This document shows, in pieces, positions 2,997 through 27,097 of a stretch of DNA of 44,615 nucleotides; within the stretch, counting starts at the first letter, position 1; each line of letters begins with the position of its first letter. Source of the DNA: a virus; IMG/VR virus record IMGVR_UViG_3300032086_001497, positions 1-44,615 of that record; one strand, written 5' to 3'. Position numbers and translations under genes: made by a program. The notes beneath the pieces are model-generated. The model was not told where the DNA came from. It was given only the letters and a program-made list of their open reading frames with translations, and made no database searches.

Positions 2997-3625
2997 CGAT
3001 AAAACTCATGTTGTCCAATTGTACCCGTGTATTCCATACCACGGTCTTTAACCCACTTAGGTCTAACTTGTAGTGAATGATAATGGGTAGCACCCTCAGT
3101 TATTCCTCGCCAGTTACCTTTGTCGAAAACTTCTTCTGCCATCATATATGATTCTGCCCAAGCATCGGGGTCGCCAGGTTCGTCACTTACACCATCACAG
3201 AACCACGAGAACTGACACATGTGACGTTTAGGAACCATGTTACCTTTCCAGTTCTCAACCCAAACAGTTTGCTTTACAACTTCACATACCGTGTTAGGAT
3301 AGTATGAATCCTCAACACGATTCATTACAACATCCGCGACAGCAGACTGTCCAGCAAAACTGTCGCCGCGAGACTCATGATAAATATTGAGAGCAAGGCA
3401 GTAACGTTCGTCTCTAAGGTACTCCTCTTCAACTGTTGGTCCAGTTGCTGTGACAACAACTTCCTCTTCAGTAATAATCTCTGTCTCTTCGACAGTTGCG
3501 ACTTGTGATTGTTGAAAATTTTGTTTCGCATCAGAAACCACCCAATCAACGAAAAAGTACAAAACAAAAAACCAAAAAACTCCGAAACAAGCGAAGGCTA
3601 GTTTCCATGTTATCGATTTTTTCAT
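2984..3625 (-). CDS. Membrane-anchored cell-wall hydrolase, SleB/Hydrolase_2 family
   Basis: A probable endolysin of 213 aa. Residues 9-30 form one hydrophobic helix after MKKS, a signal-anchor or SAR-type N terminus. Residues 31-70 are a polar acidic linker rich in Glu and Val. The SleB-type catalytic domain starts near residue 75 with LALNIYHESRG; E84 is the expected catalytic glutamate. AVADVVMNRV and ATHYHSLQVRPKW are further family blocks. The anchor suggests Sec export to the periplasmic face, where it would cut peptidoglycan. Its ATG overlaps the stop of the small membrane-protein gene (TAATG), hinting at a lysis pair. Confidence 0.9.
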   Translation of the reverse strand: MKKSITWKLAFACFGVFWFFVLYFFVDWVVSDAKQNFQQSQVATVEETEIITEEEVVVTATGPTVEEEYLRDERYCLALNIYHESRGDSFAGQSAVADVVMNRVEDSYYPNTVCEVVKQTVWVENWKGNMVPKRHMCQFSWFCDGVSDEPGDPDAWAESYMMAEEVFDKGNWRGITEGATHYHSLQVRPKWVKDRGMEYTGTIGQHEFYRWER

Positions 3626-3858
3626 TAGACTATTTTCCTTTTCTTTCCTTCTATGTCTGTTGCTGTTATAGTATAAGAAGAAGTTTCATCAACGAATTCC
3701 GCAGTAAGTGTTTCTCCATCTCGACAAAAAGAGTTTGCCATGAATTGCCAATGACTTTCAAACGCTTTCTTAGCTCCAATCGTGCGACCCCACCAATGAG
3801 CCGCCGTCATCCACACTAAGAACATCAAAGTTAATTCTGTCGGTGATAAATTGACCAT
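3625..3858 (-). CDS. Small protein with one N-terminal membrane helix
   Basis: A 77-aa protein, family not recognised. Residues about 8-22 (TLMFLVWMTAAHWWG) are hydrophobic and aromatic. The C-terminal half is polar with beta-like strands and ends in KKRKIV. The stop overlaps the hydrolase start as TAATG, so the two are translationally coupled. That pairing makes a holin, spanin or lysis-regulator role conceivable, but one short helix and no family match leave it open. Confidence 0.6.
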   Translation of the reverse strand: MVNLSPTELTLMFLVWMTAAHWWGRTIGAKKAFESHWQFMANSFCRDGETLTAEFVDETSSYTITATDIEGKKRKIV

Positions 3859-3872
3859 TTACCCTCTCCTTA

Positions 3873-5255
3873 CTATTGAATACGTAAACCTTTCAACCGT
3901 TGACCAACATTTGAATTATCAAACACTGGACCATCATCAACCGTGTCATCTGTCAAATTTTGTTCAGACTGTTCTACATCATACAACTTCATTTTACTTC
4001 TGTCAACCCCTATCACAAATCTTTTGTTTTGATTAGGGTCATTGTATCGGTTTTTAAGTTGTTTCACCATAATCTGATTTAGACTTTCCATCTCTTCACT
4101 GGTAACAAGAGCGAACATTAAATCAGCAGTAGCAGGTAGACCAAAAGATTCAGAGGTATCCTCAAGGCCTGGGTCAGAGTTTGCATAACCGGAACGAGTC
4201 GTTTGTGTTGCAGATAAAATAGGTACATCAAATTCTACTGCAAGTCCACGAATCTCTTCAGCAATTGATTTGATATATGAGTAAGAATTAATTGCACCCC
4301 CCATGCCCTTCATTCTAGATGACGCACATATATTTAGATAATCTATGAATACAATCTCAGGTTTAAACGATTTCTTTAATCGAAGTTCGTTCATTAGGGC
4401 ACGAAAGTGACCCGTGTGAGCCTGACCAGTTGGGTACTCCTTGATAATCAATTTACCTTCGGTTTTTTCTCGTATCGCCGAAACCCTATCCAAGAACATT
4501 GGTTTTGATAAATGGTCAAGTTGGTCAATAGGAACATTCAACAGATTCGCATCAATTCTTTCTGCGATTCGTTCCTCCGCCATCTCCATCGTAATATACA
4601 AAACATTGCGTCCTAGAGAAAGGCAGTTGGCGGCGCAATGACACATAAAAAGACTTTTACCCACGCCTGTACCAGCCAGTGCGATGTTCAGAGTCTTATT
4701 GGGGAGTCCACCTTTAGTGATTTCATTAAAGTATTCCAAGTCGAACGGAATTCTCTCCTCCTGCTCATGATAAAAGTCGTATCGCTCTTCTACATTTTCT
4801 AGATAGTCATGTCCTACATTAGTGTCAAAGCAAACCGCCAGTGCCTTTTGTAACACATCAGGAATTGCATTTTTAGTCAACTTCTGATGTTTGCCATCAA
4901 TAATCTGAATCGATTCCATGATAGCATTATATACCGCTCGGTCTTGACACCATTTCTCGGTGGTCTCTAACAACCACTCTTCATCTTCATCTTTGGGTGT
5001 GAAGATATCAGGAAGGATATCAAGAGCGTGCGTATACATTTCTTCGTTCATCGTCGTAACTTCATCAAGTTCGATTTTGAACGCTTCGAGTGTGGGTAGC
5101 TTGTTGTACTTGGTTACAAACTTGGTAACTTGGTCGAACAACTCACGATATACACCCTCGAAATATTTTTTCTGAACGAAGGGTAAAACCTTCCGCATAA
5201 AATTTTCTTGGGTAAGAATGTTACGTAGAATAGTTTTTTCTAATTCTATATTCAT
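3873..5255 (-). CDS. 41: Replicative DNA helicase (DnaB/gp41 family)
   Basis: The hexameric 5'-3' helicase of the T4-like replisome, 460 aa (T4 gp41 is 475). The N-terminal domain (about 1-150) is helical. The RecA-type motor has Walker A AGTGVGKS at 194-201, a catalytic Glu in ITMEMAEERIAERID, Walker B IVFIDYL at 301-307, and SATQTTR near 348-354 as the sensor/H3 region. It couples to a primase and to gp43 at the fork. Its start overlaps the stop of the 98-aa gene (ATGA), placing it in one transcript with uvsX, the primase-like gene and gp43. Confidence 0.95.
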   Translation of the reverse strand: MNIELEKTILRNILTQENFMRKVLPFVQKKYFEGVYRELFDQVTKFVTKYNKLPTLEAFKIELDEVTTMNEEMYTHALDILPDIFTPKDEDEEWLLETTEKWCQDRAVYNAIMESIQIIDGKHQKLTKNAIPDVLQKALAVCFDTNVGHDYLENVEERYDFYHEQEERIPFDLEYFNEITKGGLPNKTLNIALAGTGVGKSLFMCHCAANCLSLGRNVLYITMEMAEERIAERIDANLLNVPIDQLDHLSKPMFLDRVSAIREKTEGKLIIKEYPTGQAHTGHFRALMNELRLKKSFKPEIVFIDYLNICASSRMKGMGGAINSYSYIKSIAEEIRGLAVEFDVPILSATQTTRSGYANSDPGLEDTSESFGLPATADLMFALVTSEEMESLNQIMVKQLKNRYNDPNQNKRFVIGVDRSKMKLYDVEQSEQNLTDDTVDDGPVFDNSNVGQRLKGLRIQ

Positions 5256-22910: not shown

Positions 22911-23408
22911 TTATAGTAATTCGAAATAGGAGTACCTAAAACCAGCACTAAATGTTAGGGGTGAAATTTCTGTGTTTGTTGCAGCAAATTCGATACCTGT
23001 TACGTTGACAGGAAACGCATTGACATAACGAATTTGTTTCTTTGCATTGTTGTGACTAGAAAGAATGGTTACTGTAATATCAGCTTCAGAACCAATACCA
23101 GATAAAAGAGTTCCAGCTGAGGTTTTATATTCATCATTGACAATACGATTCAACCAAGCAAACATTTCTTCGTATGATTTCATATCTTCATCAACTAGGA
23201 AAGTGAACTGCACTTCATCAAACAATATTTTATCCCCAATGATGGGCACATTCCTTCTCTGGTATGGTGCCTCTACTTCCGAGACAGAGACGCTAGGGTG
23301 TGATACGGACTGTGCAAAGTACTGGATATTAGGATAGTTCTCCTTAGAGATAGAGACCGCAAATCCAGTAGGTTGAAGATAGTTAATGTTGCTTGTCAGT
23401 TCTGCCAC
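22911..23408 (-). CDS. Tail-tube-fold virion protein; position of gene 3 (tail completion)
   Basis: A 165-aa protein with the GTG start at 23408 preceded by AAGG. The middle, from TGFAVSISKENYPNIQYFAQ through PSVSVSEVEAP and IIGDKILFDEVQFTFLVDED to YEEMFAWLNRIV, has the order of strands seen in tail-tube-like proteins. It ends PLTFSAGFRYSYFELL. It differs from the gp19 tube protein at 40.2 kb, so it is a distinct tail protein. Marine T4-like phages carry gene 3 between gp23 and uvsY, and this fits that slot. A late promoter lies 28 bases upstream. Structural role is likely; the exact gene name is inferred. Confidence 0.65.
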   Translation of the reverse strand: MAELTSNINYLQPTGFAVSISKENYPNIQYFAQSVSHPSVSVSEVEAPYQRRNVPIIGDKILFDEVQFTFLVDEDMKSYEEMFAWLNRIVNDEYKTSAGTLLSGIGSEADITVTILSSHNNAKKQIRYVNAFPVNVTGIEFAATNTEISPLTFSAGFRYSYFELL

Positions 23409-23445: not shown

Positions 23446-23474
23446 TTGACACACTGGTAAAAATGCTATATACT
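23446..23474 (+). promoter_or_regulatory. sigma70-type promoter of the plus-strand cassette
   Basis: A perfect TTGACA at 23446-23451, a 17-bp spacer and TATACT at 23469-23474 on the plus strand. The start near 23481 gives a leader of about 20 nt for the DUF4338-like gene. This gap (23409-23501) also contains the divergent late motif. Confidence 0.85.
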
Positions 23475-23501
23475 ATTCCTATTGTTTGAGAATTTATTTT
23501 T

Positions 23502-24632
23502 ATGATTTTATCCAAATCCGATGCTTACTACGCAGCAAATGTGTTCGAAGAGTTCTTTAGTAACTTCGAACGTATTGATGATTATATGCGTACTGTTAAA
23601 ATGGAACGCATGGAATCTTTTCCACATTCACTTCCAGGCATGGGCCCTGAGAGTGACCTTTTCAGTAACTTCAATATTCACCCGAACGATATGAACATTG
23701 GATTTTATGAATGTTCACAAGAAAAATTTATGCGTTACATGGAGATTACTACCTCGGCTCCTGTAGAGGCAAGTATCCCAGGCAAACAAATGTTATGGAT
23801 AGTAACTGAAAAAAATACTGACACTATTATCGGTATGATTCGTTTCGGTTCACCAACAATAAACTCTCGTCCACGCAACGAATGGTTGGGCGGTCCTCTT
23901 GATACAATGAATCCTGATGTGATGAAACGATTTAACAAATCTGTTATTATGGGTTTCAACATTGTACCTACACAACCGTTTGGGTTCAACTATCTTGGTG
24001 GTAAATTACTGGCAGCGATTTGTTGTTCTCACACTGTACGTGAAGCACTGAATAAAAAATACGATGCGAACATTTGTATGTTCGAAACAACTTCTTTGTA
24101 TGGTTCTACCAAAGCTGCCTCGCAGTATGATGGTATGAAACCACTACTAAGGTTTAACGGTCTGACAGACTCAAACTTCGCGCCATTGATAAATGATGAT
24201 AATTTTCGTAAGTTAAACGAATGGTTTAGAAAACGAAATGATGGTGAATCCTTGGTACCTGCTGATGCATCCTCTCGCAAGTTAAAGACCCAGACCAAGA
24301 TGGTAGGTATCATCAAAGCCTCTCTCAAACAATATGATGAAACTGCCTATGCGAAGTTCTGTCAGACCTTCTCTGATGCCAAAGGATTGACTGAAAAGAA
24401 GCGTTCTTTTTATTCAACCTACGGGTATGACAATGTGCCACAGTATCTCAACATGGAGACAGACACATTGGTTAAGAAGGATAACTTTGATCGCTTTGAA
24501 CTTGAGTCAGTCATTGACTGGTGGCGTAACAAGGCGGGCAAACGTTATGAGTCTCTGAAGTCAGACGGTAGACTGCGTTCCGTTGTGGAGACTTGGAATA
24601 CTAACGCAGAAGGCATAGACATCATAAGATGA
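23502..24632 (+). CDS. DUF4338-like (DruA-related, GNAT-like) phage protein
   Basis: A 376-aa protein on the strand opposite to almost all other genes. Residues about 98-220 follow DUF4338: MLWIVTEKNTDTIIGMIRFG, PRNEWLGGPL, NKSVIMGFNIVPTQPF, FNYLGGKLLAAI, FETTSLYGS and SQYDGMKPLLRFNGLTDS. DUF4338 is the domain of DruA from the Druantia defence system, and the fold may be GNAT-like; both links are from memory. The C-terminal 150 residues are helical and basic. It has its own consensus promoter. Molecular activity is unknown. A role in DNA modification, or in countering or excluding rivals, is only a hypothesis. Confidence 0.6.
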   Translation: MILSKSDAYYAANVFEEFFSNFERIDDYMRTVKMERMESFPHSLPGMGPESDLFSNFNIHPNDMNIGFYECSQEKFMRYMEITTSAPVEASIPGKQMLWIVTEKNTDTIIGMIRFGSPTINSRPRNEWLGGPLDTMNPDVMKRFNKSVIMGFNIVPTQPFGFNYLGGKLLAAICCSHTVREALNKKYDANICMFETTSLYGSTKAASQYDGMKPLLRFNGLTDSNFAPLINDDNFRKLNEWFRKRNDGESLVPADASSRKLKTQTKMVGIIKASLKQYDETAYAKFCQTFSDAKGLTEKKRSFYSTYGYDNVPQYLNMETDTLVKKDNFDRFELESVIDWWRNKAGKRYESLKSDGRLRSVVETWNTNAEGIDIIR

Positions 24633-24646
24633 CTATATACTAATAT

Positions 24647-24665
24647 GAGATACATGTTGTATCTC
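24647..24665 (+). other. Hairpin between the two plus-strand genes
   Basis: A 7-bp perfect stem GAGATAC/GTATCTC with loop ATGTT. No T-run follows, so it is not a simple terminator; it may stabilise or separate the two messages. The next gene has a strong AAGGAG site after it. Confidence 0.45.
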
Positions 24666-24692
24666 TACTAAAAATAATACAAGGAGTATTAT

Positions 24693-25682
24693 ATGCGTAA
24701 GAGCACTAAACATAGTGAAGTCTCAGGTGAGCTCGCTAACCTAAAGGGTACAGTCCGTATCCAAGACATTATCGATGCGATTCTCCGTATCGAAAACTTC
24801 AAGACCAAGACCCTAGCTGGTATGATCTCAAATGCAGTTTATGACCCTAAAGAAGTGGGTGTGGTTGCAATCGATGAGATTTGGGTTGACATGACGTATC
24901 AACGTATTGTCCGTTTGAAGAAACTCATCAACAAACTTCAAAAGATGAACGGGTTTGATCCATACTCAGCTGGAGTAGTGGACATCGCAATCCGGCCGTC
25001 CGGAAAGAAGTTTTGTTGGGACGGTCTCCGCCGTATTATCATGGCGGGTCTGTGTGGTTTGACTCACATCAAGACTTCACAGTTGGTACACAAACAGTTT
25101 ATGACTGACCTAGATTGCCAAAAAGAAGAAGCGCGTTACTTCAAGTCACGTAACGCTGATCAGGAGTCTATGAAAGCAGAAGAAATTTTTAAGTCTGAGG
25201 TTGTCTTTGGTGATCCGGATGCTCTAAAACTTTTGAACGTTTTCAAAAACTGTGAACTTGACGTAGAGGGACTAAACCCAATTGGAAAGTCTTTGGGTGG
25301 TTTTGTTGAAGTCAAGACCAATTATTTCCGAAAGGACGGTATACCCGAAGAGTACTTCATTGAGTCTTCTCGTATCATTCAAAAAGTTTATGATAGAGAA
25401 CCAACCGTTTCCGGTTATTTACTTACAGGTCTTGCATATCTTTTAATGAAGAACGAAGATGTCGATCATTCTTACAGTATTGATGAGATTGTAGAAAGTT
25501 TGGTAAATTTCAAACGTACCAATCCAAAACAAACTAATCTTATTAAGGGACGTTTGGCTGGCAATGCACGTGCAAGTATTGCATACTTAATTACTAGACG
25601 AGCATTAAATGATAATAATGGGTTGTTAAACTCTATAGGTCTTGATGATGAGACTATGGAAATAATCGATCAAGCTGCATAA
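24693..25682 (+). CDS. ParB/sulfiredoxin-fold phage protein
   Basis: A 329-aa protein, second gene of the plus-strand cassette, with a strong AAGGAG site. Residues about 55-130 resemble the ParB/Srx fold: VVAIDEIWVDMTYQR, then a helix, VVDIAIRP, and WDGLRRIIMAGLCG at 109-122, the counterpart of the DGxHR motif that contacts phosphate or DNA. The rest is mainly helical. Such domains occur in phage DNA-processing and base-modification loci as NTPase or nuclease-like enzymes. No classical HTH of chromosomal ParB is apparent. The function is not known. It ends just before a bidirectional terminator. Confidence 0.65.
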   Translation: MRKSTKHSEVSGELANLKGTVRIQDIIDAILRIENFKTKTLAGMISNAVYDPKEVGVVAIDEIWVDMTYQRIVRLKKLINKLQKMNGFDPYSAGVVDIAIRPSGKKFCWDGLRRIIMAGLCGLTHIKTSQLVHKQFMTDLDCQKEEARYFKSRNADQESMKAEEIFKSEVVFGDPDALKLLNVFKNCELDVEGLNPIGKSLGGFVEVKTNYFRKDGIPEEYFIESSRIIQKVYDREPTVSGYLLTGLAYLLMKNEDVDHSYSIDEIVESLVNFKRTNPKQTNLIKGRLAGNARASIAYLITRRALNDNNGLLNSIGLDDETMEIIDQAA

Positions 25683-25710
25683 AAAAAGGGGCACCGAAGT
25701 GCCCCAAATT
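25681..25710. terminator. Bidirectional intrinsic terminator between ParB-like gene and gp23
   Basis: A 7-bp GC-rich stem GGGGCAC/GTGCCCC at 25688-25705 with a CGAA/TTCG tetraloop. On the minus strand it is followed at once by seven Ts, ending the gp23 message. On the plus strand AAATTTTT follows, ending the cassette message. The plus-strand stop codon lies within the A-run. Confidence 0.9.
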
Positions 25711-25732: not shown

Positions 25733-27097
25733 TTAGTCGAGGATGTTATCCACGCGGAAAATACGATAGTACTGGTTAGCACGTACTGTGTTAGCCAAGT
25801 CACTCTGAGGTGAACCTGTACCAGCATATGGGTTAGCGATCATGCCGTAACGAGTCTTGAACCCGATACGTGGTTGGAAGTCATTCTCACCAACCGCACG
25901 TACCATCTGGAGAGGAACGTATGGGCAGTAGAAAACGCCTGAGTCGTAAGGATTCGTACCCTTATAACCTACAGTCACGTAGTCTGTGTCAGCATATGGG
26001 TCGATGTAAACACGTGTACGACCATTCAATACACCAGCAAACGTGTTGCCTGTGTCATCTACTTGAAGGTTAGTAGAAAGAGCAGGTGAGTAATCAAGCA
26101 TACCAGCAGCAGCGAGAGCAGTAGCAACATCTGAAGAACAGATTACTACGTTACCCTTACCACGACGAGTGTCCTTAGCAATTACGTTACACTCACGCTC
26201 GATCTGTACCAACATACCCTTGAACTTCTCAACTGACCAACGACCATCAGCGTCCGTAGACAAGTCGAAGATACCCTTAGTAGTCATGTTAGATTGAAGA
26301 GCACCAATCTTAGCTTGAGAGTTGATAGTACGGATAACTTCACGGTTGATTTCCGCAAGAATTTCCGTAGACAGAATGTTAGCAAGTTCTGTCTCAGCGT
26401 CAAGACCATGAATAGCCTTGAGGTCTTGAGCGAGTTCAAGCGTATATTCTGCTTTCAAAGCACGTGATACCGCAGTAACCGTTGCCTTCTCGATGGTGAA
26501 ACCCATTTCATGGAAAGAGTTACCACCAGTAGTACCAAGAGCTTCAGCAGTAGCAGTTGACATACCACGGCCGATATCAACAGTAGTTGTTTCGTCAGCA
26601 ATAGAAGAGTCACCAGCGCCTGGGTTAGTATTAGTTACACCTTTAAGACCTGAAGGACCACGAGTGTCAGCCAAGTCAGTTGAAGAGTCACCAGAATATG
26701 GAGTTGGTGCTTCGTTGAACAGAGCTTCTGTATCAACAGCACCAGCACCAGCATTAGGTCCAGTCTTAAAACGTGACTTCATAGCGAAGATAAGACCAGT
26801 AGGACCAGTCATAGGCTGAACGCCACAAACGTCATATGCCATCAAGTTAGGCATAGCACGACGAACGAGGGCGATAAGGATGGGGTCCCAGTTTGCACCA
26901 CTTGAACCAGCAGCTTGGGTTACAGAAGTGTTTGTGTTTACTTCGTTAAGTTGAGCTTGTTCCATGAACGCCTTCTCTTGGTTTTCCAAGATAGCAGCAG
27001 TTACAGCACGACGATGAGAATCTTTGATCTCACCCGCTGACTCTTCATTCAGAACTGGAGCCCACTTCTCAACGAGTCTATCGTAAGAAATTTCCAT
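25733..27097 (-). CDS. 23: Major capsid protein gp23
   Basis: Forms the hexameric shell of the head, 454 aa (T4 gp23 is 521). Family blocks include VRRAMPNLMAYDVCGVQPMT near 82-101, TGLIFAMKSRF, MGFTIEKATVTAVSRALKAEY and YTLELAQDLKAIHGLDAE in the middle, and VGENDFQPRIGFKTRYGM with NPYAG near the C terminus. It is cleaved in T4 by the gp21 protease, encoded downstream in the same module. A strong AAGGAG site precedes the ATG. The gene ends before a strong terminator, as expected for the most abundant late product. Confidence 0.98.
   Translation of the reverse strand: MEISYDRLVEKWAPVLNEESAGEIKDSHRRAVTAAILENQEKAFMEQAQLNEVNTNTSVTQAAGSSGANWDPILIALVRRAMPNLMAYDVCGVQPMTGPTGLIFAMKSRFKTGPNAGAGAVDTEALFNEAPTPYSGDSSTDLADTRGPSGLKGVTNTNPGAGDSSIADETTTVDIGRGMSTATAEALGTTGGNSFHEMGFTIEKATVTAVSRALKAEYTLELAQDLKAIHGLDAETELANILSTEILAEINREVIRTINSQAKIGALQSNMTTKGIFDLSTDADGRWSVEKFKGMLVQIERECNVIAKDTRRGKGNVVICSSDVATALAAAGMLDYSPALSTNLQVDDTGNTFAGVLNGRTRVYIDPYADTDYVTVGYKGTNPYDSGVFYCPYVPLQMVRAVGENDFQPRIGFKTRYGMIANPYAGTGSPQSDLANTVRANQYYRIFRVDNILD

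What the first reader, a model, noticed from the sequence alone, without database searches (positions are those of the whole stretch)
23446..25710. Self-contained plus-strand cassette: DUF4338-like plus ParB/Srx-like genes with own promoter and terminator
These are the only two genes on the plus strand in 44.6 kb. They sit between gp23 and the gene-3 slot, a conserved junction in marine T4-like phages. A perfect TTGACA-N17-TATACT promoter starts them and a bidirectional terminator ends them. DUF4338 is the DruA domain of the Druantia defence system, and ParB/Srx folds recur in phage DNA-processing and base-modification loci. Hypothesis: an early-expressed two-protein DNA modification, anti-defence or superinfection-exclusion system. 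SHMT in the same window would fit a need for one-carbon units, but no pyrimidine hydroxymethylase is visible here.
Basis: partly seen in the sequence, partly recalled or inferred. Interest (0 to 1): 0.78.

Follow-up and report, generated by a model that had tools for sequence, protein, structure and literature searches.

The report
Phage DruA gene with swappable nuclease partners
A marine T4-like phage carries a small gene pair with its own start and stop signals, in which a constant gene related to the bacterial anti-phage protein DruA sits beside a partner that related phages swap for quite different proteins, several of them DNA-cutting, which looks like a weapon cassette used against other DNA.

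Summary
The cassette is real: promoter 23446-23474, DruA-like gene 23502-24632, ParB/Srx-like gene 24693-25682, bidirectional terminator 25688-25705, between a gp3/gp19-like tail gene and gp23. The first protein models as a GNAT acyltransferase (pLDDT 88); the top row of a structural second look is phage Mu Mom, tied with other GNATs. The second models as a ParB/Srx fold. In relatives the DruA-like gene stays while the gene after it is exchanged: ParB/Srx-like proteins, GmrSD-HNH proteins and remote relatives, a PD-(D/E)xK-like group, or an EcoRI-family endonuclease. DNA homology breaks within 78 bp of the DruA stop codon in 12 of 12 pairs examined. Loci with the EcoRI-type partner lack RAATTY sites (0 observed, 176.5 expected, 11 of 11 related loci), so there self-protection looks like site loss, not DruA modification; a plain restriction-modification reading is not supported. 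Best reading: an early-expressed phage DNA-conflict cassette with an interchangeable DNA-directed effector; the DruA-like protein's own job is inferred. A seeming DruA-GACGTC link was tested and rejected.

The parts
23446..23474 (+). sigma-70-type promoter TTGACA-N17-TATACT
   Evidence: 11 of 12 consensus positions; a site of at least 10 of 12 at 50-57 bp before the DruA ATG in 31 of 34 loci, window included
23502..24632 (+). DruA-like (DUF4338) protein, 376 aa, GNAT-type fold; the constant gene of the cassette
   Evidence: PF14236 E=3e-11, PHROG 19197 full length E=1e-162; PADLOC DruA E=8e-7; AlphaFold2 pLDDT 88.4, structural rows mostly GNAT enzymes, Mu Mom first by VIA-align
24681..24686 (+). 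ribosome-binding-like AAGGAG before the second gene
   Evidence: sequence
24693..25682 (+). ParB/Srx-fold protein, 329 aa; the variable partner in this phage
   Evidence: no Pfam match; phrog_2558 E=5e-12; model residues 53-168 match ParB, Noc, KorB, sulfiredoxin, SbnI
25688..25705 (.). bidirectional intrinsic terminator
   Evidence: GGGGCAC-loop-GTGCCCC, listed on both strands
22911..23408 (-). left flank: T4 gp19/tail-tube-like gene (gene-3 slot)
   Evidence: PF06841 E=7e-7, PHROG 45 E=6e-35
25733..27097 (-). right flank: major capsid protein gp23
   Evidence: PF07068 E=5e-147

Best explanation
It is a mobile DNA-conflict cassette of marine T4-like phages. A constant DruA-like gene is followed by one exchangeable, DNA-directed effector gene; the pair has its own host-type promoter and its own terminator. 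Shown here: the fold classes of the two window proteins, the conserved promoter, exchange of the partner at the DruA stop codon, presence and absence of cargo at the gp23 junction, and total lack of RAATTY in loci whose partner is an EcoRI-family nuclease. Inferred: the effector (in this window the ParB/Srx protein) attacks DNA that is not the phage's own (host chromosome or a competing phage) early in infection; carriers escape their own effector by losing its target sites, at least for the EcoRI type; the DruA-like protein transfers an acyl group, perhaps to DNA as Mom does, to help, target or limit the effector. The substrate of the DruA-like protein is not known.
For: DruA-first scan, 80 loci: 50 are followed by a gene of one of six sequence groups (in L011 and L012 after one small gene), 18 by other genes, 12 end at the contig edge (hand count). 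What the groups are: window type, ParB/Srx by fold; GmrSD_N plus HNH, both over cut-off, in L036 and L072, with remote relatives (about 23% identity) that show only sub-threshold HNH hits at the same C-terminal place (6 of 6 scanned); a PD-(D/E)xK-like group read by eye with weak PADLOC support (E=0.008); the rest ParB/Srx-like by motif, weakly supported. EcoRI type: PF02963 E=7e-17 and 2e-18, phmmer to EcoRI structures E=1e-11; DruA upstream on the same strand in 15 of 15 loci, in some cut by the contig edge or with a small gene between. Partner-first scans: DruA upstream in 18 of 19 loci of the HNH-like group (the other is a contig edge) and 26 of 31 of one ParB/Srx-like group (3 edges, 2 true absences). 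DruA tree of 50 rows, 10 labels: 27 label changes, least possible 9, shuffled mean 36; the 8 ParB rows need 8 changes; 23 changes if related groups are merged. Homology stops between -78 and +78 bp of the DruA stop in 12 of 12 pairs that I picked and resumes past the partner in 10. EcoRI carriers: RAATTY 0 of 176.5 expected in 11 of 11 loci, 2801 of 4187.6 in 150 non-carrier loci; RAATTY ranks first among those of 640 palindromic motifs that are low in all three carrier loci used; GAATTC 0 in each of five carrier contigs, 9-58 in each of 11 others. Bacterial DruA: a NurA-domain nuclease gene lies next in 4 of the 5 best-scoring loci.
Against: No activity is shown for either window protein. The carriers of the EcoRI-type partner are related (85-91% DNA identity in three pairs), so the site loss may be one or few events. 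Their sister loci without EcoRI also have low RAATTY (43 of 104 expected; as low as 0.21 in L135), and L213, with no EcoRI-family match in its 20 kb contig, has none in 7.9 kb, so a RAATTY-cutting host is not excluded. No convincing partner-specific avoided motif was found for the other partner groups. At the polymerase slot in some phages, and in the cyanophage and HTVC008M records looked at, the DruA-like gene stands without a partner, so it must do something alone. The ParB model is of modest confidence (pLDDT 67). Several partner groups have no significant family match at all.
Confidence: 0.48

Rival explanations
1. Restriction-modification pair: the DruA-like protein acylates phage DNA, as Mom acylates adenine, and so protects it from the partner nuclease, which destroys unmodified host or rival DNA.
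For: Highest structural row is Mu Mom. Mom fused to nuclease domains in jumbo phages is proposed to work this way (PMC7824862, passages seen). Mom-like genes lie next to or one gene from ParB-like genes in phages Appa and Martha (not in 3 others looked at). No N6_N4 methylase in 10 of 11 contigs searched, some of them fragments.
Against: Loci with the EcoRI-type partner have no RAATTY sites left to protect. DruA phages avoid many palindromes, so their DNA does not look broadly shielded. No profile-level link of DruA-like to Mom (hhalign probability 0.16). Mom's Z is tied with other GNATs. One DruA contig (G007) does have an N6_N4 methylase, as does L014.
Confidence: 0.18
2. Selfish mobile endonuclease cassette (homing-like): the nuclease spreads the module between phages and the DruA-like gene is an anchor or passenger.
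For: Of 57 gp23-first loci that show the tail gene, the junction has 76-202 bp in 35, 350-1475 bp (mostly other cargo) in 20 and DruA in 2; one cargo has a NUMOD3 motif (L177); clean breakpoints; HNH motifs in some partners and an HTH protein with an HNH-like motif by eye in the EcoRI cassette.
Against: The ParB/Srx, EcoRI and GmrSD types are not homing families that I know of (recalled); the partner is exchanged while DruA stays; loss of every RAATTY site fits a frequent cutter, not a rare-site homing enzyme.
Confidence: 0.17
3. The DruA-like protein acylates a host protein (such as RNA polymerase or a defence protein) for takeover, and its nuclease neighbours are unrelated cargo of an insertion hotspot.
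For: Phages use GNATs on proteins (PMC7824862, passages seen); the gene stands alone in replication gene clusters of the records looked at.
Against: Partners searched without reference to DruA still have DruA upstream in nearly all cases with upstream sequence, and in bacteria DruA is followed by a NurA-domain gene in 4 of 5 best loci.
Confidence: 0.15

Closest known systems
DruA of type I Druantia (PF14236/DUF4338)
   Same: The DruA domain matches over residues 74-198; DruA-like proteins of Synechococcus phages were already noted by structure (PMC12774648, passages seen).
   Different: No DruB-DruE genes seen beside it; sits in lytic-type phages with exchangeable single partners.
Phage Mu Mom and Mom-nuclease fusions of jumbo phages
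   Same: GNAT fold; Mom is the first row of the structural second look; pairing a GNAT with a nuclease in a phage is the same idea (PMC7824862, passages seen).
   Different: Not a Mom family member by Pfam or profile comparison; separate genes; partner exchanged; self-protection by site loss in the EcoRI case.
EcoRI-type type II restriction enzymes
   Same: A partner in related phages is an EcoRI-family nuclease with the PDGG, EAK and GNAIER stretches aligned, and RAATTY is absent from carrier loci.
   Different: No methyltransferase seen beside it; the window itself has the ParB/Srx partner instead.
ParB/Srx superfamily and GmrSD_N (DUF262) restriction proteins
   Same: Fold of the window's partner; GmrSD_N plus HNH in relatives L036 and L072.
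   Different: The window protein matches no Pfam family; its C-terminal part is unassigned.

Membership tests
DruA (PF14236) | Pfam DruA domain above its cut-off | tested here: met
   43.4 bits against cut-off 27
Druantia type I system | DruB-DruE genes next to druA | tested here: not met
   neighbours are tail-tube-like, ParB/Srx-like and gp23 genes; the gene list of type I is recalled
GNAT acyltransferases | GNAT fold | tested here: met
   model pLDDT 88; most of the 50 Foldseek rows shown are named acetyltransferases, best E 2.7e-3, prob 0.95, none under 0.001; 133 of 997 chains at VIA Z 8 or more
GNAT acyltransferases | acyl-CoA dependent transfer activity | not testable with these tools
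   needs biochemistry
Mom (PF25680) | match to the Mom family model | tested here: not met
   DruA-like protein hits only PF14236 at E up to 1; Mu Mom itself hits PF25680; hhalign probability 0.16
Mom (PF25680) | Mom-like three-dimensional structure | tested here: inconclusive
   8bv8 rank 1 of 997, Z 9.6, 188 residues, but within 1 Z of other GNATs
ParB/Srx superfamily | ParB/Srx fold | tested here: met
   first 31 VIA rows are titled ParB, Noc, KorB, PadC, sulfiredoxin, SbnI, free serine kinase or Atu1540 (that all share the fold is partly recalled), Z up to 6.2 over residues 53-168; model pLDDT 67
ParB/Srx superfamily | nuclease or NTPase activity | not testable with these tools
   needs biochemistry
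Type II restriction-modification (EcoRI variant of the cassette) | restriction endonuclease of a known family | tested here: met
   PF02963 E=7e-17; not in this window
Type II restriction-modification (EcoRI variant of the cassette) | cognate methyltransferase beside it | tested here: not met
   cassette ORFs in L174 and L190; no PF01555 in those two fragmentary contigs; other methylase families were not searched
Type II restriction-modification (EcoRI variant of the cassette) | own sites kept and protected by modification | tested here: not met
   RAATTY 0 observed of 176.5 expected
Homing endonuclease cassette | intron or intein location, or biased inheritance | not tested
   location is intergenic; inheritance needs crosses

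The most novel reading that the evidence does not exclude
DruA-family GNAT proteins are the constant half of a widespread class of two-gene systems, in phages and in bacteria (DruA-NurA), in which one acyltransferase licenses, targets or controls whatever nuclease lies next to it. In phages the nuclease is exchanged like a cartridge, and the phage genome then purges the new nuclease's sites. This would give DruA of Druantia its missing biochemical role.
Probability: 0.2. Interest if true: 0.85.

Novelty: new variant of a known kind. Interest (0 to 1): 0.7.

Why it matters
If true, lytic-type marine phages carry a constant gene with cartridge-like nucleases for fighting host or rival DNA, and self-immunity comes from changing the genome's own word content rather than from a methylase. 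It makes the unknown function of DruA testable with small phage proteins, and it shows that site loss in a genome can reveal the target of a nuclease carried in the cassette.

Tried and rejected
GACGTC: 1 observed against 341.7 expected in 161 DruA loci, and 31 against 96.1 in 77 loci without DruA, looked like a DruA signature, and whole records mostly agreed (0 in nine of the ten IMG/VR contigs and phage records with the close DruA family except 2 in G007; 2-27 in five contigs without it, 0 in two). The cyanophage control rejected it: 7 of 8 cyanophages that are not among the DruA hits also have none (P-SSM2 has 4), and S-B68, which has DruA, has 26. It looks like a feature of the phage family.

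GATC avoidance as a ParB-partner signature: rejected, since it ranges from 0 to above 1 within the same partner type. Avoided motifs for the other partner groups: leads such as ACCGGT, GGWCC and RGATCY are shared with other groups or rest on few loci; not claimed.

Profile comparison among partner groups: no link in most pairs; g0-g14 gave E=3e-4. DruA-Mom profiles: no link. PDB sequence search for both window proteins: nothing useful. Mom family search in 185 genomes: nothing rang, also not in controls, so no conclusion. The genome-contig scan found 11 DruA-like loci in metagenome bins that may be phage contigs; not used as bacterial evidence, but some served in the alignment for the model and one (L102) as the centre of the bacterial sample. 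A label error: in the tree L032 was put with the GmrSD-HNH rows although it is nearer the other HNH-like rows; moving it leaves 27 changes.

Literature searched: DUF4338, 3 papers; DruA+Druantia+structure, 4; Mom/GNAT; phage restriction and exclusion; Druantia+cyanophage, 2; DruA+NurA, none. Only listings were seen except passages of three papers. The exchangeable-partner cassette was not found in print in these searches.
Full report
Observation. The window holds two plus-strand genes at the stated place, with promoter, ribosome-binding site and bidirectional terminator, between a tail-tube-like gene and gp23, with uvsY next. Promoter-like matches as such are not remarkable here (11 found, 10.3 expected), but a site of at least 10 of 12 matches at the same 50-57 bp before the DruA start occurs in 31 of 34 loci that I picked, window included; the exceptions are L156 and two polymerase-slot loci without partner, L061 and L065.

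The proteins. The first is a DruA (DUF4338) homologue: Pfam E=3e-11, PADLOC DruA E=8e-7. With an alignment of 41 sequences AlphaFold2 gives pLDDT 88. Of the 50 Foldseek rows shown most are named acetyltransferases; none is below E=0.001 (best 2.7e-3, prob 0.95). That DUF4338 is a GNAT domain is stated in PMC10853773 (passages seen). No sequence-profile link to Mom was found. The second protein has no Pfam family. Its model is modest (pLDDT 67), but the first 31 structural rows, over residues 53-168, are ParB, Noc, KorB, PadC, sulfiredoxin, SbnI, serine kinase and Atu1540, in line with Foldseek.

Relatives. DruA-like genes were found in 31 phage records, mostly cyanophages and partly duplicate entries, and in 105 stretches of IMG/VR, of which the best 80 were kept. 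They sit in several places: the gp23 junction, beside DNA polymerase, and among clamp-loader genes of cyanophages. Of 12 contigs searched whole, ten have exactly one copy and two partner-only contigs (L133, L134) have none.

Exchangeable partners. Of the 80 DruA-first loci, 50 are followed on the same strand by a gene of one of six sequence groups (in L011 and L012 after one small gene), 18 by other genes, and 12 end at a contig edge (hand count). The groups are: the window's ParB/Srx type; further proteins that I read as ParB/Srx-like by a G-x-H-R-like motif with only weak model support (ParB_N E=0.06 for L031; phrog_15918 shared by the window protein, E=0.016, and the g17 group, E=7e-13; two groups, g0 and g14, linked at E=3e-4); the g1 group, in which L036 and L072 have GmrSD_N and HNH over cut-off, L051 GmrSD_N just below it, and six remote relatives only sub-threshold HNH hits at their C terminus; and a PD-(D/E)xK-like group read by eye. 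A seventh kind turned up when the junction was scanned from gp23: an EcoRI-family endonuclease, with a small HTH protein (HNH-like by eye) before it in 9 of 15 loci and ThyX after it in 12 of 15. Scanning from the partners, DruA lies upstream in 10 of 10 ParB-type contigs with upstream sequence, 18 of 19 HNH-like g1 loci (one contig edge), 26 of 31 of one ParB/Srx-like group (three contig edges, two true absences, L133 and L134) and 15 of 15 EcoRI loci, four of these with DruA cut by the contig edge. On a tree of 50 DruA proteins (93 before near-copies with the same label were dropped) ten partner labels, set by me, need 27 changes, where 9 is the least and 36 the shuffled mean; 23 changes remain if related groups are merged. 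Partners are thus exchanged often, though not at random. In 12 of 12 pairs that I picked from this tree, DNA homology ends between 78 bp before and 78 bp after the DruA stop and, in 10, resumes beyond the partner. At the gp23 junction, of 57 gp23-first loci that show the tail gene, 35 have only 76-202 bp, 20 have 350-1475 bp and 2 have DruA; the remaining 23 of the 80 loci did not show the tail gene after gp23 (L174 among them does have DruA). In L190 the DruA ORF is short (324 aa).

What the partners do: the EcoRI test. The EcoRI-type partner matches PF02963 (E=7e-17) and EcoRI structures (E=1e-11), with the PDGG, EAK and GNAIER stretches aligned. If it is active, carriers must cope with its site. 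GAATTC is absent from five carrier contigs (63.9, 37.2, 26.9, 14.7 and 11.4 kb), while each of 11 other contigs has 9-58. A test of 640 palindromic motifs on three carrier loci put RAATTY first among motifs low in all three. RAATTY is absent while YAATTR words are near expectation (0 of 114 against 74 of 97; mixed words 85 of 212). In loci of 7 kb or more, 11 of 11 carriers have none (176.5 expected) and 1 of 150 non-carriers has none (L213); many of these loci overlap or are related, so the sums are not independent. Sister loci without EcoRI are intermediate (43 of 104), which fits a recent exchange of the partner but also a clade-wide host pressure. The reading is that the phage nuclease works on DNA in the cell and the phage survives it by having no sites. 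This speaks against the simple view that DruA modification protects against the partner.

A false lead. GACGTC is missing from nearly all DruA loci, and whole records mostly agreed, but cyanophages without DruA lack it too and one with DruA has 26.

Bacteria. Among 274 genomes of one class, 16 have DruA matches. In the five best-scoring loci a gene of 395-424 aa lies next on the same strand; in four it matches the NurA nuclease domain, in one nothing. Of the weaker loci scanned, L263 and L264 have a transposase-domain gene next. The first set again puts a nuclease next to DruA.

Interpretation. The best-supported reading is a phage DNA-conflict cassette with a constant GNAT-fold gene and an exchangeable DNA-directed effector. 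The role of the effector is supported by family membership for some kinds and, in one kind, by site loss; for the window's own ParB/Srx partner it is inference by position. The role of the DruA-like protein is open: DNA acylation as by Mom is the leading chemical guess; protection of phage DNA is only one of its possible uses and is disfavoured in the EcoRI variant. Precedent for GNAT plus nuclease in phages is the Mom-nuclease fusion proposed for jumbo phages (PMC7824862, passages seen). DruA-like proteins in Synechococcus phages are in print (PMC12774648, passages seen); the exchangeable partners were not found in print in the searches listed under Tried and rejected.

Noticed in passing
W01-W19 records and DruA loci: GACGTC is absent from 17 of 19 Kyanoviridae-type records tested, with or without DruA; S-B68 has 26 and P-SSM2 has 4.
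   Followed up: partly
gp23 to tail-gene junction, L168-L247: The junction is an insertion hotspot: 20 of 57 loci have 350-1475 bp there, with varied ORFs (a NUMOD3 protein in L177, a weak phosphate-transporter-like one in L169, small others).
   Followed up: partly
L299 (phage Appa), L301 (phage Martha): Mom-like genes lie beside or one gene from ParB-like genes in two actinophages, a parallel to DruA plus ParB/Srx; not seen in three other Mom records.
   Followed up: no
L255, L257, L258, L259: Bacterial DruA genes followed by a NurA-domain nuclease gene.
   Followed up: partly
L133 and L134, about 3323-4972: A ParB/Srx-like partner without DruA, next to a 179 aa gene similar by eye to the gene after the ParB gene in L005, possibly a nuclease; no Pfam match.
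   Followed up: partly
L014, 9694-10434: A DruA-like gene followed, three genes on, by an N6_N4 DNA methylase (E=1.6e-38).
   Followed up: no
L284-L295: A ThyX gene follows the EcoRI-type gene in 12 of 15 loci.
   Followed up: no
L213: No RAATTY in 7.9 kb (18.8 expected) though no EcoRI-family match was found in its 20 kb contig.
   Followed up: partly
L202, 4497-7055: Here DruA is followed by a 326 aa glycosyltransferase-like (by eye) gene and a 501 aa gene with a DGGHR motif; neither has a Pfam match.
   Followed up: no
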